Below, one piece after another: positions 120-22,600 of a DNA stretch of 64,000 bases (position 1 is its first letter; each line of letters begins with the position of its first letter). The notes beneath the pieces were generated by a model. It saw only the letters and a list, made by a program, of their open reading frames with translations. It did not search any database and was not told the origin of the DNA. The stretch lies in assembly GCF_028389875.1 (NCBI RefSeq), contig NC_084671.1:28825083-28889082 (forward strand), written 5' to 3'. Position numbers and translations under genes: made by a program. The DNA is from Rhea pennata (lineage: Eukaryota > Chordata > Aves > Rheiformes > Rheidae).

Positions 120-1391
120 CAACAAATCCCAAAGCAGGAGTCTTGTAAATAGTCAGCATGGATTCACCAAGGGGAAATTCTGCTTAACCAATCTGATCGC
201 CTTCTAGGATGGAATGACTGGCTGGGTAGGGGAGGGGAGAGCAGTGGACGTTGTCTACCTTGACTTCAGCAAGGCTTTTGACGCTGTCTCCCATAACATC
301 CTCCTAGAGAAGCTCAGGAAGTGTGGGATAGATGAGTGGACAGTGAGGTGGGTTGAGAACTAGCTGAAAGGCAGAGCTCAGAGGGTTGTCATCAGTGGCG
401 TGGAGTCTAGTTGGAGGCCTGTGGCTAGTGGAGTCCTCCAGGGCTCAGAACTGGCTCCCATCTTGTTCAGCTTCATCAATGACCTGGACGAAGGGACAGA
501 GTGCCTCCTCAGCAAGTTTGCTGATGGTGCCAGGCTGGGAGGAGTGGCTGAGACACCGGAGGGCTGTGCTGCCGTTCAGAGAGACATGGACAGGCTGGAG
601 AGCTGGGCGGAGAGGAACCTCCTGAGGTTCCACAAGGGCAAGTGCAGAGTCCTGCACCTAGGGAGAAATAACCCCAGGCACCAGGACAAGCTGGGGGCTG
701 AGCTGCTGGAGAGCAGCTGTGCAGAGAAGGACCTGGGAGTGCTGGTGGATGACAAGTTGACCCTGAGGCAGCAATGTGCCCCTGTGGCCAGGAAGGCCAA
801 TGGTCTCCTGAGGTGCATTAGGAAGAGTGTGGCCAGCAGGTCAAGGGAGGTGATCCTGCCCCTCTCCTCAGCCCTGGGGAGGCCTCATCTCAAGTACTAC
901 ATCCAGTTCTGGGCTCCCCAGGACAAGAGAGACATGGAGCTACTGCAAAGTCCAGCATAGGGCTATGAAGGTGGTCAGAGGGCTGGAGCACCTGCCCTAT
1001 GAGGAACGGCTGCGAGAGCTGAGACTGTTTAGCCTGGGGAAGAGACGACTGAGGGGGGATCTTATCAATGTGTCTAAGTACGTGAAGGGAGGGTGTCAAG
1101 GGGGCAGGGACAAACAGTTGCCCCATATGACAGGACAAGAGGCAATGGGCAAAAACTGCACCACAGGAAGTTCCACTTGAATATAAGGAAAAACTTCTTT
1201 CCTGTGAGATGGACGGAGCACTGGAGCAGGTTGCCCAGAGAGGTTGTGGAGTCTCTTTCTCTGGAGATATTCAAAACTCGCCTGGACATGATCATGTGCA
1301 ATGTGCTCTAGGTGACCGTGCTTGAGCAGGGAGGTTGGACTAGCTGATCTCCAGAGGTCCCTTCCAACCTCAACCATTCTGTGATTCTGTG
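120..1391 (+). mobile_element. CR1 LINE, 3' part of ORF2 plus 3' UTR, inactive
   Basis: A truncated chicken-repeat-1 non-LTR retrotransposon. From about 247 it reads VDVVYLDFSKAFDAVSHNIL, the reverse-transcriptase block with the FSKAFD motif. Further on come [21 protein letters not shown] and [12 protein letters not shown], all typical of the C-terminal CR1 polymerase. A TAG interrupts the frame at about 362, and the frame shifts near 950, after MELLQ. The copy ends in the CR1 3' hairpin region and two ATTCTGTG-type terminal repeats at about 1375-1391. Its 5' end is cut at about position 120, as usual for CR1. It cannot encode a working polymerase. Confidence 0.93.
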
Positions 1392-13600: not shown

Positions 13601-16600
13601 TGCTGTGAAAGGCTGATGTGGGAATATGGATTTGTCCTGCCATTTTTTTCCCCCTGCACCTAGGCATCAAATCAACCCCCCTGCATCCCCACCTGCATGT
13701 TCTAATGGAACTGTTCTTTCTGTGTTTGATTTGCAGCTAATAGTGCTCGACCCCCCGGTAAGTAATAAGCTGAATCCTGCTCAGAATCCTCCTTTTTTGG
13801 TCCTGTTGGATGTGGTGCTGTGCAGCTGCAGATGTGGCATTAGAAGCACACAATATAGATTCTCCTGTAGAGCCAAAATAGATTTGAATTAGGTGGTATT
13901 TTTAAAAGAGTAGCTGTTTTGCACTTACTGCAACTGTGTTGTTGTCATCTTGTGACCAAAATTTCTAGCCAGCCTGAGTGGAGAGTTTTGAGTATTTATC
14001 AGTCACTGGGCAGTGATGAGAACCACCCCCCCTCTTTTTTTTTCCTGCAGGTGGAGGAGAGTGAGAATGAATGGGCTGTCCCACACTGCTTCACAATCTA
14101 TTCAGCACAAAAAACCATAGTAGTGGCAGCAAGGTAATGTATATTTTTCCTCAGTTGCACATAGGTTAATAGGTGTCTCCTCCAAATTAATTCAAGTTTA
14201 ATTACATAGTGCAGAGCCAGAGTGGTGTTTCACGTGTCCTCTGGAAAGGACAACTTTAAAACAAATATATGGTGAAAACAATTCCTTTACCAATATTGTT
14301 TTTAAAAGAAGGAGTAGTTTCAACAATCAAACAGTAAATTATTAAATTGGCAATAGCATTGCCATTATATTGTTTCCTAGTTGTCTGAGCTGCTGGTGAC
14401 ATCCTCAAAGCAACTGCTAAAAAGCAGGAAACAAACTGAAATCTAAATATACAAATATTTCAGAGAACCAAAAGGACTTAAAATCCAGAATATACAAATT
14501 GATTTAAGGAGGGGAGAGTTCCTGGATAGATCTCAAGAAGGAAGCTGTGAGATAAGAGAAAAATTAAAGGTTAGCTTGGAGAGCAAACCGGTTTCTTTTC
14601 AGCATAACTTTTCCCTTGGCATTGAGTTGAGGGTGAGGAGTTTTCTCTTCTTGCCTGGACCATCCAGGCAATAGCAGCTAGAGCAGCTCATGAAGAAGCA
14701 GAGGGAAAGGACAAGAGCAGCACTGCACCCGAGGGGAGGAAGAGGAGAGTTTGGAGCATCTCGGCTGGGTCCTTAGGGTACTGCAGCCTGGGACCTGAGC
14801 CTTGCGATGTGCTGGGGCTGCCTCTCGGAGGAGAGCTCGCTCTGACTCCTCTGCACACCACAGGGCAGCAGCACAGGGAGCACCCGCTCCCCCCTCTCCC
14901 CCCCCCCGACAAACATAACGAAGGTGTCTGGTGGTCAGAGGCTTCATGGGGAGCTCCAGGGCTCGTGGGAAGATGCAGCAAAGCCAAGCAGGCAGGAACA
15001 GCTTTTCCCAGCCCTCAACATGCAGCTTGTATGAGATGGATCCAGCTTACACGAGAAAATCCAGACTAAATGCTCCCAGGCCCCCACTGGCATTTCTACC
15101 TCGAAGACAACAGTTCTGCAAGGAGGAGCCTGGGCCTTTGGCTCTTTCTCCCTGCCGCAGGTAGCTGCTTTCTGAGCTGAGAGTAGAGTTCAGTAGCAAG
15201 GAGCATGGGGCTACTTAGCTCTGTGTCCGGGTGCCAGGACACGGCAGTCCCTGAAAATGCCAAACCACCCTGGCACTAAAATGCTCTCTCTGCAGTAACT
15301 TAGGCCTTTGTGGTTTTTGGACAGATGGTAAAAAATGTGGGCAAATAGCGATTGATACCACATTTAGAGATGTGATTTGCAAAACCAAGCTTTGCTTGTA
15401 GGCAGTAATTATCCCGCTGTAATTTGTTTGTTTTTTTTTTTGTTTGTTTTTGTTTTCTCTCTAAATGGTTACAGTGCAACGCATAAGGTAACACACAAAT
15501 TTTGCAAGGGTTAATTCCGCTGGTAATCAGACAGGTTGCTTTGGTTAGCCTGGTACAAATCCATCTGAGGAAGGTGTAATTCCATTTTGGTACGTCGATG
15601 TATCGATCCCAATGGTCTTTCCGCTAACCCGACAAACCCGTGCTGGATGTGCAAAGTGATTGACTAAGCCTGCGCTGCTTTTTAGCTGCGTGTACTCAGC
15701 TAACTACTATAAGCATTTGGATTTCAGGGTAACACTTCGGTGCTGTCCTTGTTGCCTCTGTATTGCAAACGTAATAAGGATGTCTACACCCAGTCTCTCA
15801 GGATTAGCTTTAGGAGTTTTTGAACATCTGCAGTTCCTTTAAAAAGCAGTTGGCGTTGCATTTGTTGGGAGTGCAGAAGTGGAGCAATAAATCTCAACTT
15901 TTAATTTTGTAGGGATTTTTACTAGCTAATAGCTCCCATTCTTGAAAAATAACTATTATTGACTATTTACCAACCAGGTAGATAGTGGCATAGCAGCCAT
16001 TATTTTTTGTATGCTCACATATTTAGCAAGCAAAGCTTTCTTTTTTTCCCTTCCATTTTTTAATTCCAGTCTGATGCTTGAAAATGTCACATATTTTAAG
16101 GTCAACCATTTTTTAGGCAACCGTGAGCCAAGAAGTGTCTGAAATGGTCTTAAATTTGGAAAAGTAAATGTATTTCTTTTCACCATGTCGTAACTTGGAA
16201 ATAGTTCAAAGAGTTTTTTCCTTTGACTTCTTACCCTCCCTACCTATCAGAAAACAAAACAAAACAAAACAGTCATTGCTGGGCTTAGGCCGTGCTTGGA
16301 ATATGCAGTCTAAATGGAAAACTTTCAGAAATTGATGAGCTACAGAAAAAAGGTGGTTACAAAACAAAGCTTCCCCATGGAACTGGTCGACCAGGTGCTC
16401 TGGATAAGCATATATAACACTTTGAACAAAAACTGGGAGTGTAGCAGGAAGAAAAAAAAGAAATGCCAAGGCCACGTTCAATTCTTGAAGGAAAAGGTTT
16501 GCGCTGTTGCACTCCAATGAATAAAGATGCCAATACTCGAGGAATAAACGTCTTTCCGTGTAAACGTGGCATCAGCCGCGCAACCTGTGATTGGGCTGAA

Positions 16601-19600
16601 AGAACTCTTGTGTTTTACTTGCTTGAGATGAAGGATAAATAATACATCGCCTGTAGAAAACACGCTGTCTTTCAAGTTGTCTTTCATCCTCCAAAGTGTC
16701 CTTTCCAGTGTGGTCATAACCAAACATCTCCAAAGTGCTCATAGAAATATTTTTTTGAGAGTGGAAGGGTGATTTCTTGTTTGAAGTAGCTGTGAAGCCC
16801 TCTGAGTGAAGAACAGCTGCCTGTATGAAGAGCAGTGAGGATCTAGACAGGGTAGTTGCTCTTTTGAGGAAGATAGGGAGATCCTCCCTGCTCTGTCTTT
16901 GCTGCCTAGTCATTCTCTTCCTTATTCAGCCCAAGTTTTAAAACAGTTATTTTAAACTCGTCTCAAGTGGCTTGAAAACAGCGGTGAAGGCTATATGAAT
17001 TCAGTTTCCCATCAGGAAAGCTGCTAATCATGTTTTTGAGGATTTTCTCCCTTTTTTTTTTTTTTTTTAATGGAAAGGGACGGCTTTTGATATTGGCCAG
17101 GGAGTTTTGCCTTCCTTTAGGAATCCCGTTGGGCAGTCGCCATTCACGCTGTTTCGTCTTGCAGTACCCGCCTGGAGATGGGGAAGTGGATGGAAGACCT
17201 AAACATGGCAATCGAAATGGCCAAGAAATCTACTGAGAAGTCGGACATGCTTCTGGAAAACTCCGTGTGCAGTCGTTCCAACAGTAAGTAGTATTTTCTG
17301 CCTTCTTGGACAGTCTGAGGTGACATGTCCTTTGCTTTTTTTCTCTTGGAAATGTGATGACATAAATGGTGTATTTGATCATTTTTACAGTAATGGAGAG
17401 CTCTTCTCCTGTTTTATTTGGAATAAATATGCTTGTCTTCCCAGACTGGTGTTCCTGGTAGCTTTAAACACAGCAGAGATACTCCAGCTGCAGAACTGTT
17501 AATTTTATCGGGTCCTTATTTAACTCTTATCTACTCTTTTCTCCATTTAATGATGTAATATGTATTATTGTCCAGAAAAATTGTCCTTGCAGGTCAGAAA
17601 GTTCTTCTGTGGCCCAGCATTTTTGCGCCTGTCTTTGATGTTGTTACAGATGTGATGAAACACACAGTATTTTCTTCTTAGAGCACTTTTTCCCAGTCCT
17701 CACTAAGAAGAGACTCTCCTGTCAGACCCTTCCTTAGAGTGGGTGCTGTAAAATGCTCTCCTACTTTTAAGATTACTTTTTTTCCCCTTAATTTTATGCA
17801 ATCCTGAGTCAGCTGCCCCAAGCAGAGTTGAGTAGCGAAAGCCAAAATGATCTGCTCAGAATGGCTTTTAAACACCGTGTAGCAAATTCAAATTGACTTA
17901 TTTTAAAACTGGGTCGTAGCAGAAGAAAAACAGTTATTCTGAGGAATTCCTGCTTTTCTTGCTGTCTTTGTATTGCACAATTTTCTTAAACAGCTGCTGA
18001 ATTCTCCTCCCCCAGGATCCTCTGATGAGGTCTCTCTAGAACAGGAGTCCGAAGATGACATACACTCTTCTCGTAGCTCCTTGGACAGGCAGAGCCACCA
18101 CCGTGCCAACACAACCATGCACGTGTGCTGGTACCGCAACACGAGCGTCTCCATGACTGACCACAGTGTGGCTGTTGAGGTACCCGCAGGGCGCAGCTCT
18201 CACGTCTCTCTCTGTCCGTCTTGGCTCGCTCAGCCCCTGGTCGTCCTCCACCACGTGTTTTCGTGTTGCCTTCAAAGCATTTCTGTGGCCGTGAGAGAGC
18301 GCAAGCGATGAAAGGCTCGCTGCATGTCTGCCCATCTTTGTGCACGTCTGTGCGTCTGCGTACACCAGCAGGCTCTGCTGTCCCTGCAGCGGCGCTCTGT
18401 CCAGCAAATACTCTGAAAAAGGGAGATTTAAAAGCAACTCCAGGATATCCCTAGGACTGAATTGCTCATTGAGTTTCATAGGCCTTGCTTGTGGATGATA
18501 AATTTGTGTTACCTACCGATGGTACTTTACTTTAGGGACTGACTTGGACATACTGTGGTCCCATATGTGTGTTGGTTAGTCAGGACACCCTCCTGGAGGC
18601 TGTCATCCTCGCAAGGCTTCCGCTAGTGGAGATGTACCAGAAATATCTCGAAGAGAAAAAGGAGCTTGCTAAGTGGAGAAACACCGGTAGTTCAGGATGC
18701 TGCATCTGTGTGTTTGTACCTTCCTAACTTCCTTGCCCTGCTTTTTGGTTTAATGGTAGGAGTTAAAAGTTGGGCACTGAAGCTTCTGTGTTTTCCGGCT
18801 GTTTATAGCATTAATTAGCTCGCTGATGGAAATTTTGTAGACCTGTTACATTTGAGTTAAGGTGCAGGACTTGTACGTTTTAGCCAGCTAAGGGAGTCGT
18901 TTCTGGGAGACAGCCTTCCTTCCCACGACGATAGACCTGTGAAAGGCACCGTTTCACTGTTTTATACCCAGATAATGAGACCTGCCTGCTGCAGGCTCTG
19001 GGATTAAATGTGTGAGTTCTTGCAGCATCCTCTTGCCTTGATCTGTTTCGTGTTCTAATATCATCATTTTTTTCCACAATCCATTTTCCTTTAACAGATA
19101 CTTCCCTTGCGTCGCTTTTCTTATCCTAACGTCCTGTTTTTCTCTTTCTCTCCCTCTTTTCTCTGCTCAGTTTTCTGCTCTCTTGCTGTTTCTCCAGAGC
19201 TTCCTCCTCGCTATTTGCTGGGCCAGGCCCAACGGCCCAACACAATCACCCATGTTTGCTGGTACCGGAATCAGAGCCTATCCCTGTCCGATTACCTGTG
19301 CATGATTCAGGTAAAAAAAACCTCTCAAATTCTGCACTGGTGGGAGGAGCCACGGGATTGCAGACAAAATTTGCTGCTGCTTGCTCCGTATTTGCATAGT
19401 GTATGTCGTACTAGCGTAAGGATGCCTGATCCATCCAGCAGCAGAGTCGTAACGTTTCCTCGATAGAGGAGTTCCTCCGCTTTCTGCTTCCCCAGACCAT
19501 CCTTCGTGTTATTCTGCTGTTTATTCTGTCCTTTTCTTTATTTCTAAAATCCGCTTGCCATCATCCCACGCCGTAGGTTTCCTTATCCCGCTGCACCGAT

Positions 19601-22600
19601 GTTCGGTGGCTCCGACTCCAGCATGCCGATGTTTAAGCTGCGCGGCGCTTTCCTGCAGCCTGCTTTGCTTCGCGTAGCTGCCGCGTTCTTGTCTGTCGCT
19701 CTGGCCTCCGTTACCAGTCTTCGTCTCCTCTTCTGCTTTTGTTTTCTCAGCACATAAAAAAAGGGTAAATGCAGGGATGACATGCCTTTGTGGCTGTTAC
19801 TTTTCCAAGCATGTTTTCCTGCCTGTAGGCTGCAGAGGACAGTGGTAGCTGGACTGGTGCATCAGTGCAGCGCTCTCCTTTGCCGCGCCTGGCACGACTC
19901 TGAGATGCAGCGAACAGTTCGATGCAGAGTAGCTTTATATTTGTGGAGGAAAAATGCTAGGTGGTGTGCAAAGGGAAGATAGCTGTTTTGCGGAATTAGC
20001 GACTCAAAGTCATTCTGTCGCCACAGGAAATATCCAAGAGGCCTTTCACAACGCGGGAACAAGAGCTGTTGTATGGGAGCAGCAGTGTCAGGGAGCCTCA
20101 GGCTTTTTATTCACAGTAGCTGTGGATAAAAAAAAAGTCTTTTTTCTTAAGGACCAAGCGATCCGTGATTTCACATCACTTTTCTTTTCGTTCCCTCCTA
20201 GAATCAGCTTTCAGGGTACTTGCTGAGGAAGTTCAAGAACAGTAACGGCTGGCAGAAGCTGTGGGTCGTCTTCACCAACTTCTGCTTGTTCTTCTACAAA
20301 ACGCACCAGGTAAGCAAACGTAACTGAGAAGCTGCAAGAGCTGAGTTGAAAATGTTGGATGGGAACTGGAATCGTTTGCTTTCAGCCATAGGGCACCGCT
20401 CAGTGGTATTTAAAGGAGAGTAACAAAGAGGAAAGTAGGTAGCAAGTAGTGAAGCTAGTCTTTGGAAGGCTTTTCTTACGGAATTTAATCAGGATATCCA
20501 GTTCTGTTGATGGTGCTGACCTCGGTGTGAGGGCAGGATGCCTCGTAACGTGGTCACTAACGGAGGGCAAGGACGCGTTCACCAGTCACTGTTCTTTTCT
20601 CCACCTGTACCGTACTGCTCTCACCTCTTGGGTTCACCGCAGTTAACGGTTAAACAGGCGCCAGGAATTTCTCTGCCTGTGGTGTAGTCAGTGCCTGCTT
20701 TTATAATGAGCTTTGCGGCAGTGCAGCCTGTGCCTTTTCTTTTTATTACCCCAATAAACTGTGTTTATTTTATTTGGTCACCTTGCCTGGAGGGTACGTT
20801 TCTTCTGGGGGGGGGGTCGCTTTTGCTTTTACGCTGAATCCGCGCCTGAAGTTTCCGAGAGACGGTGGGGAGGGGGAAGAGGAGAATGCAGGAGACAGTG
20901 AAGGGCAGGGGAATAGAGGCGAGTAATTTCATTAAAACACTGAAAGCAGTTGAGGAAATTTTGTTATAATCTATCACAGGCCTCACAAGAGATGAAAAGG
21001 CAGCTCCTCCTCCCATTCTCTCCTAAACACTAAGACTTCCTTAAGTTTTCAGTCCAAAAGAGCAGACACACGTTTGGGCTTGCTGTCTGGAGCTACGTGG
21101 CAGGGGGTGCCTTGCGCTAAGACCTGTGCTGTCGGGCTGTTCCAGGACGATTATCCTTTGGCTAGTCTCCCGCTCCTCGGCTATGCGGTAAGCTCCCCCA
21201 TGGAGGCAGACGGCATTCAGAAGGATTACGTCTTCAAGCTGCAGTTCAAGTCCCACGTGTATTTCTTCAGGGCTGAGAGCAAATACACCTTTGAGAGGTA
21301 ATTTTATGTCGTAATGTAATTTTTTGTCTGTCTCAGAATACAACGTTCTGTTAGCTTGTTAGCTGAAAATGTAGAGTTATGATATTTAGAGCTCCTGACC
21401 GTAATCCAAGTGACCTTCCAGAACACCTAGCATGTTCCCAGTGAAAAAGTTCCTTCATATCCATAAAGTTTGATAATCCCTCCTCTATCAGACCCTTCCT
21501 CCTTGCGGGGAAAAAGATGGTGATTACAGCTAGAGCTGTAGGCTCTGCATCGTCTCCGGAGTCCGGGAGTCCCTTGGAGCTGGGGAGTGGCATGGATGGA
21601 AGGGCTGCGAGATGCTCAATTCTGCTAGCTCCAGGAAGTCAGATTTCTAGGTTTTTGAGAGCTTTGTTAAGAATACCCCCCCTTTTCCCCTTGACTTCCA
21701 AAGAAACAGGAGTTATAGCTCAGGCCAGAGAGCAAGGAGTACAGCGCTGTTTTTCAGTCTGATGCTTTCTCTCATCATTTTTGGCAGGTGCTTCCAAATA
21801 TGGTCCAAAGTGGATCAGTTTAAAATACACAAAGTACAAAACTTTATTCTTACAAACCCTATGTAAAACCTAAAAACATTTTATTTTCTTCAGAAAGCAA
21901 GATCTCTTAAGTCAGTGTAATTTAGCAGTATTCTTATGTAATGGATATTGTCTTCTGCATTGCTTTCTGCCTTGCAGCATGCTATTGGGCTTTTGTTTTT
22001 GGCATGTTTTGTTACTGAGAAGTCACCATGTACTTCTCCATTCCTTGGAAGAGCATCACACATTTGTGAGCTGTATGTATGTATCAACTACCTGAAATAG
22101 CTCTTTAATCCACCGGCTTCATATAGTAATTTCAAGGAAAAAAATCTCTAATTCACAATTGGTGGTTGTCTGGCTTTTTTCATTGTCGCTATGTTTTCTT
22201 CCATATTAACAAGAATTGAGAATCTGTTACATGTTATTGTAAGAAAAGCAGTCCAGATGACTTAAGAGGACAGGCCAGCAACATTTTCCTAAGGTAAAAC
22301 TGAACCAGAGAGTTTCTGCACAGTTACAAGAGATTACAGCGTGCTCTGATAAAAGCTGACTGGAGCTCAGAGCACTGTAGATCATTCCTTGGACAGGCAA
22401 CCTTGTTCTTTAGTGTATTTATCACATCTTAAGCTAGGTTTAGCACAGTCAAAAATCAGTCTGTAAGAGCAGGAACTATAATTTTGTACAATTCTTGGAT
22501 TGTCCCTTAAAAAAGAAAAAATAAGGATTTGCTAGTATACCTCCCATTCCAGTGCTGGCTCTTTTCTTGAGAGCCATAACTTGGATCTTCCCTGACATTT

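What the first reader, a model, noticed from the sequence alone, without database searches (positions are those of the whole stretch)
18016..19310. Tandem duplicate of the FARP2 linker exon, fitting mutually exclusive splicing
Seen: the exon at 19198-19310 ends in 26 residues that align without gaps to the end of the standard exon 18016-18179, with 13 identities including HVCWYRN. Both start in phase 1 and end in phase 0, and both have usable splice sites. Known: this block sits just before PH2, and the FARP PH domains fold over the DH domain to inhibit it. Inference: the choice between a long acidic linker (54 codons) and a short one (37 codons) would change the PH1-PH2 spacing and perhaps autoinhibition. 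I do not recall a description of this in FARP2.
Basis: partly seen in the sequence, partly recalled or inferred. Interest (0 to 1): 0.8.

Follow-up and report, generated by a model that had tools for sequence, protein, structure and literature searches.

The report
Ancient alternative exon pair in FARP2
A bird gene for a cell-shape switch protein (FARP2) carries two related neighbouring exons, of which a messenger can sensibly use only one; the second one looks real, is shared from sharks to birds and has a counterpart in the sister gene FARP1, but we found no paper that describes it.

Summary
Window 18016-18179 is the usual FARP2 PH1-PH2 linker exon; a homologous exon lies 1 kb downstream. 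Its main start is 19171, not 19198 (two in-frame acceptors, 27 nt apart; both forms are annotated in other birds). They match over 26 residues (13 identical), far beyond chance. Equal phases mean that both or neither gives a premature stop. NCBI's Rhea pennata FARP2 isoform X2 (P0034) equals our model with the second exon over all 508 residues compared. The exon is in 142 of 143 proteins fetched, from sharks to birds; no mammal was listed. FARP1 in the same genome has the same pair, order and length classes, so the duplication probably predates the FARP1/FARP2 split. It is a new, very old member of a known kind: alternatively used, probably mutually exclusive tandem exons. Effects on GEF autoinhibition and PTB-type control are inferences. 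17 of 142 models hold both exons, so exclusivity may not be strict. No junction reads were available.

The parts
17165..17283 (+). FARP2 exon e9 (end of PH1 and start of linker), ends in phase 1
   Evidence: tblastn and splice model; match to 4gzu
18016..18179 (+). usual linker exon e10, 164 nt: acidic, serine-rich part plus HVCWYRN block; weakest donor of the 13 scored (GAG|GTACCC)
19171..19310 (+). alternative linker exon e10b, long form, 140 nt (IFCSLAVSPELPPRYLLGQAQRPNTITHVCWYRNQSLSLSDYLCMIQ)
   Evidence: P0034 identical over 508 residues; same kind of form in fish and sharks
   Evidence: annotated form in falcons, duck, lizards, turtles; acceptor score
19100..19170 (+). AG-free, pyrimidine-rich tract before e10b with branch-point-like CTAAC at 19126-19130 and CU repeats (PTB-like; function inferred)
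19098..19310 (+). possible in-frame extension of e10b from an AG at 19096-19097 that would allow joint inclusion with e10
   Evidence: frame open from 19095, acceptor score 8.6; similar extended forms in pigeon and fish models
20202..20309 (+). exon e11, first part of PH2, accepts either linker exon in phase 0
13737..13757 (+). 21-nt microexon LIVLDPP inside PH1, a second probable alternative element of the same gene
   Evidence: motif in 53 of 143 FARP2 proteins

Best explanation
FARP2 has a pair of tandem homologous exons, e10 (18016-18179) and e10b (19171-19310), used alternatively to build the linker just before PH2. Shown: homology, matching phases, premature stops if both or neither is used with the common acceptors, an annotated rhea isoform identical to the e10b model, conservation from sharks to birds, and a homologous pair in FARP1. 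Inferred: choice is kept one-at-a-time mainly by frame and mRNA decay; e10b has good splice sites but a PTB-type pyrimidine tract and so is probably silenced in most cells and used where PTBP1 is low (nerve, retina, muscle); e10 has a weak donor. Inferred: the swap keeps the conserved HVCWYRN core but replaces the acidic, serine-rich stretch (SSDEVSLEQESEDD) with SPELPPRYLLGQ, which changes how firmly PH1 and PH2 hold the DH domain shut or what can release it.
For: Chance excluded. P0034 identical over 508 residues, and its contig length equals that of the window's contig. Alt exon in 142 of 143 fetched proteins, from sharks to birds; 125 of the 142 hold it without e10. P0052: a 1055-residue FARP2 protein with the alt exon and without e10 on a 4013-base contig, which can hardly be unspliced DNA. 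Both or none gives a stop. FARP1 pair in the same order and with matching length classes; quartet grouping std|alt in 9998 of 10000 resamplings. Acceptor tract and weak e10 donor. FARP1 and FARP2 DH-PH-PH crystals are autoinhibited, with PH2 among the elements that block the GTPase site (PMC6041286, passages read).
Against: No junction reads or tissue data could be examined; annotation models alone do not prove transcription. 17 of 142 alt-containing models hold both exons, 7 of them with NCBI 'isoform X' names. GEF tuning and PTB control are untested; in FARP1 the alt acceptor scores lower than the usual one (8.8 against 11.5) and has only one CU repeat. The PPxY motif is missing in 12 of 142, so it is not the universal function of the exon. 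Both structure predictions failed in the linker.
Confidence: 0.7

Rival explanations
1. The exons are alternative but not exclusive: e10b is a cassette with several acceptors (19098, 19171, 19198), and joint inclusion through the upstream in-frame acceptor makes a third, longer linker.
For: 17 of 142 alt-containing models hold both exons, most of them joined by a stretch that looks like translated intron end; in the window the frame is open from 19095 and an acceptor at 19098 has the right phase.
Against: 10 of the 17 carry no NCBI 'isoform X' name (names); 125 of 142 hold the alt exon without e10; joint inclusion through the two common acceptors breaks the frame.
Confidence: 0.2
2. e10b mainly serves to lower FARP2 output: including it after e10 or skipping both makes decay-prone messages, and the e10b protein itself matters little.
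For: Both-included and both-skipped messages carry early stops.
Against: The e10b protein is highly conserved (30-32 of 37-39 residues shared between rhea and three sharks, 34-35 of 39 with the ray-finned fish compared) and keeps phases that make a full protein; a decay-only exon needs no such constraint.
Confidence: 0.07
3. e10b is a chance match or a decayed copy of e10 without use.
For: No reads could be examined here.
Against: 0 of 5000 shuffles, conservation in 142 proteins, counterpart in FARP1.
Confidence: 0.01

Closest known systems
Tandem duplicated, mutually exclusive exons of vertebrates ('The landscape of human mutually exclusive splicing', PMC5740500; 'Origins and Evolution of Human Tandem Duplicated Exon Substitution Events', PMC9741552)
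   Same: Two adjacent homologous exons with matching phases and lengths not divisible by three, so that both or none breaks the frame; PMC5740500 reports such lengths in 60% of its clusters (passage).
   Different: Neither main text holds the word FARP (passage searches; supplements not seen); both catalogues are of human genes, and we saw no mammalian copy. Homology covers only the last 26 residues, the first part differs in kind and length, and the alt exon has two acceptors.
FARP2 'isoform X' models in NCBI
   Same: The alt exon, long or short form, is already in FARP2 isoform models of many vertebrates, including Rhea pennata X2 (P0034).
   Different: Automatic annotation; no paper found in our searches. 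Whether FARP1 models carry its alt exon was not settled.
PTBP1-repressed neuronal, muscle and photoreceptor exons (ASCOT, PMC6952364)
   Same: CU-rich tract before the exon; [quoted passage not shown]
   Different: Binding and tissue use not shown; the Farp2 exon checked by that paper's primers lies between e7 and e9, not here.

Membership tests
mutually exclusive tandem exons | adjacent exons homologous to each other | tested here: met
mutually exclusive tandem exons | same start and end phases, so either fits the same neighbours | tested here: met
   FARP1 pair also 3n+2 in length
mutually exclusive tandem exons | both or neither gives a non-functional frame, or is otherwise prevented | tested here: inconclusive
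   stop in both cases with the two common acceptors, but an in-frame acceptor at 19098 exists and 17 of 142 models hold both
mutually exclusive tandem exons | messages with each exon alone | tested here: inconclusive
   gene models with e10b alone: 125 of 142, with P0034 and the contig-borne P0052 among them; e10 alone: P0137 and 4gzu. Models and one transcript-like contig, not reads
mutually exclusive tandem exons | junction reads from each exon past the other, none between them | not testable with these tools
   no RNA-seq reads available
FARP2 (FERM, RhoGEF and PH protein) | DH-PH1-PH2 with closest match to FARP2 rather than FARP1 | tested here: met
PTB-repressed exon | extended pyrimidine tract with CU repeats | tested here: met
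   FARP2: 78% pyrimidine over 120 nt against 46-62%, 3 CU repeats against 0-1, AG-free 71 nt (next longest 65). FARP1: 70%, one CU repeat, AG-free 94 nt
PTB-repressed exon | inclusion rises when PTBP1 falls | not testable with these tools
   needs RNA data
WW-binding (PPxY) switch | PPxY conserved in the alt exon | tested here: not met
   130 of 142; the rows without it include the five shark proteins, six turtle rows and one flatfish

The most novel reading that the evidence does not exclude
The exon pair arose before the two rounds of vertebrate genome doubling, is kept in both FARP1 and FARP2, and sets two levels of autoinhibition of a Rac/Cdc42 exchange factor in sharks, fish, reptiles and birds; mammals lost the FARP2 alternative, so work in mouse and human has seen only one setting.
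Probability: 0.35. Interest if true: 0.7.

Novelty: new member of a known kind. Interest (0 to 1): 0.52.

Why it matters
FARP1 and FARP2 sit autoinhibited in crystals, and how they are released is open (PMC6041286, passage, even mentions the pseudo-GEF possibility). A conserved exon that swaps the linker next to PH2, and that the solved mouse FARP2 chain does not carry, gives a direct, cheap test of what holds the switch shut. It also adds an apparently very old tandem exon pair, kept in two paralogues, to the known ones.

Tried and rejected
Structure prediction of the alt isoform (P0035, 50 sequences, mean pLDDT 42) and of the usual isoform (P0137, 51 sequences, mean pLDDT 59, residues 388-502 with the linker below 50): both too poor, so no fold search was run. 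WW-motif (PPxY) as the exon's purpose: rejected as universal (130 of 142). RBFOX GCATG sites: four in 2.9 kb, about what one in 1024 gives, not used. The bacterial promoter and terminator scan has no bearing. The ASCOT Farp2 exon was considered as the same event and rejected: its primers read VTGASH (e7) and STRLEK (e9). A microexon in the FARP1 e7-e8 intron: none found with the patterns tried. Steric exclusion by a short intron: judged unlikely, 991 nt lie between the exons. Absence in mammals is not proven: no row with a mammal's name is among the 120 listed in each of three searches (of 511, 202 and 554 hits; names are cut short and two rows are unnamed). In one search, whose query carried the mouse flank, the usual rodent-like isoform P0137 was listed at 94 bits, so a rodent isoform with the alt exon should have ranked above it. 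FARP1 models with the alt exon were likewise not listed, but rows below 114 bits were not shown, so the FARP1 alt exon is known here only from DNA of one genome. A search of the solved structures with the alt form found only the two FARP chains.

Full report
WHAT IS THERE. The stretch belongs to FARP2. tblastn with a recalled human FARP2 sequence as guide places the DH, PH1 and PH2 exons in order at about 7.5 to 23.2 kb on the + strand and also hits the second linker exon on its own (E 6.8e-5); exact exons were set by splice sites. The spliced linker region matches mouse FARP2 (4gzu) better than mouse FARP1 (4h6y). Exon e9 (17165-17283) ends in phase 1; exon e10 (18016-18179, 164 nt) runs from phase 1 to phase 0; exon e11 (20202-20309) opens PH2.

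THE SECOND EXON. Between e10 and e11 lies a second exon. Its last 26 residues align with the end of e10 without gaps, 13 of 26 identical. The score (83) is reached by 0 of 5000 shuffles, and the best of 2782 other open pieces in the window scores 40. Six of the 13 identical residues are written with a different synonymous codon, as expected if the protein is what was kept. The other, at 19171, gives the form N-IFCSLAVSPELPPRYLLGQ; forms of this kind are the ones in the fish and shark rows and also occur in birds. The short form N-KLPPRYLLGQ is a separate isoform in falcons, duck and swift and is also seen in lizards and turtles.

IT IS ANNOTATED AND OLD. P0034, NCBI's FARP2 isoform X2 of Rhea pennata, is identical to the window model with the 19171 exon over all 508 residues compared. 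Its contig length (30,823,342) equals that of the contig on which the window lies, so the window is very probably lesser rhea. Three protein searches gave 511, 202 and 554 hits with 120 rows listed each, together 143 proteins; 142 carry the alt-exon motif and one (P0137) is a usual isoform. They come from birds, squamates, turtles, axolotl, ray-finned fish including sturgeon and paddlefish, and sharks (Stegostoma, Chiloscyllium, Mustelus, Heptranchias). The queries held the alt exon, so this is not a census of FARP2. Over 37-39 aligned residues the rhea exon shares 30-32 with three sharks and 34-35 of 39 with the ray-finned fish compared. P0052, from an unnamed source, is a 1055-residue protein with the alt exon and without e10 on a contig of only 4013 bases; for a gene spread over many kilobases this can hardly be anything but spliced RNA. 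No row named as a mammal was listed; this suggests loss in mammals but does not prove it.

FARP1 HAS THE SAME PAIR. Searching the window's own genome with the alt exon gave, besides FARP2, two weak places about 1.4 kb apart on another chromosome (E 0.02 and 0.08 genome-wide; three further rows at E 0.5 to 1.9 were taken as noise). The fetched DNA is FARP1: e9, then a usual exon (164 nt, C1:160210733-160210896, minus strand), then an alternative exon (137 nt, C1:160209253-160209389), then e11. Within these 7 kb the alternative exon has E 8e-8. Both FARP1 exons have lengths of 3n+2, as in FARP2. In the 26 shared residues the two alt exons agree at 14, the two usual exons at 20, FARP1 alt and usual at 9, FARP2 alt and usual at 13, and the cross pairs at 12 and 10. 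All four informative columns group alt with alt, and 9998 of 10000 column resamplings of an identity quartet agree (2 ties); 26 columns and four sequences are a small basis. The duplication therefore most likely came before the FARP1/FARP2 split, which I date to the vertebrate genome doublings from general knowledge, not from a call. The FARP1 exons were printed with a first residue E; with the true last base of e9 (A) it is K; this does not touch the 26 residues compared.

HOW IT PROBABLY WORKS. Using e10 and e10b together, with either common acceptor, ends in a stop inside e10b; using neither ends about 14 codons into e11. Frame thus favours one exon at a time. This is not watertight: an AG at 19096-19097 would open e10b in the right frame for joint use, and 17 of 142 models hold both exons: 13 fish, 3 birds and a snake, 7 of them with NCBI 'isoform X' names. 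By a simple weight matrix built from recalled frequencies, e10 has the weakest donor of the 13 scored (2.9 bits; 576th of 3374 GTs) and an acceptor ranked 120 of 5012 AGs, while e10b's acceptors rank 15 and 9 and its donor 59. The 19171 acceptor has the longest AG-free stretch of all acceptors scored (71 nt; the next has 65), 78% pyrimidine over 120 nt against 46-62% elsewhere, and three CU repeats against none or one. That is the look of an exon silenced by PTBP1. In FARP1 the alt exon also has a long AG-free stretch (94 nt) and 70% pyrimidine against 50% at the usual exon, but only one CU repeat, and its acceptor scores lower than the usual one (8.8 against 11.5); its donor is again the better one (6.1 against 4.6). 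I infer default use of e10 and e10b use in cells with little PTBP1, such as neurons, photoreceptors or muscle; nothing here shows it.

WHAT THE SWAP WOULD DO. Crystals of FARP1 and FARP2 DH-PH-PH show PH2 and other elements blocking the GTPase site (PMC6041286, passages read; the original paper, doi 10.1016/j.str.2013.01.001, is not held; that its inter-domain linkers are well structured is recalled). The FARP2 exons of both kinds and the mouse FARP1 exon share R-N---HVCW-RN---S--D (22 sequences) directly before PH2; the rhea FARP1 alt exon, not among those 22, keeps less of it (VCWYR but not HVCW or RN). So this piece is probably structural. The swap exchanges the acidic, serine-rich first part for a neutral, proline-bearing one and shortens the linker by 8 residues (17 with the second acceptor). 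I infer altered strength or triggering of autoinhibition. The LPPxY motif could bind WW domains but is missing in 12 of 142.

KNOWN OR NEW. Paper searches with FARP2 and mutually exclusive, FARP1/FARP2 with alternative splicing and exon, mutually exclusive and tandem exons in vertebrates, FARP2 structure, FARP2 with microexon and PTBP1, splice variants and exon duplication listed no title or abstract start on this exon pair. I read search listings only, apart from passages of PMC6952364, PMC6995393, PMC9741552, PMC5740500 and PMC6041286; several listings showed only the top rows of many hits, and the library holds only open-licence papers. So the exon is in automatic annotation but, as far as these searches go, undescribed. 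In kind it is an ordinary tandem-exon alternative; what stands out is its age, its retention in two paralogues and its likely absence from mammals.

Noticed in passing
window 13737-13757 (+): A 21-nt microexon (LIVLDPP) with TTGCAG and GTAAGT flanks sits inside PH1 between e7 and e8; the motif is in 53 of 143 fetched FARP2 proteins. It is probably the mouse Farp2 exon whose RT-PCR primers are listed for novel exon validation in PMC6952364. Not found in the FARP1 e7-e8 intron with the patterns tried.
   Followed up: partly
window 208-957 (+): Open frames resembling a CR1-type LINE reverse transcriptase (LDFSKAFDAVSHNILLEKL), judged by eye and memory only.
   Followed up: no
G000 C1:160209253-160209389 (-), locus L009: Alternative linker exon of FARP1, apparently a counterpart of the FARP2 one; whether any database annotates it was not settled.
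   Followed up: partly
proteins P0018, P0020, P0026, P0027, P0028, P0031, P0032: Fish FARP2 isoform models that hold both linker exons, joined through a stretch that looks like translated pyrimidine tract; either real joint inclusion or a prediction habit.
   Followed up: no
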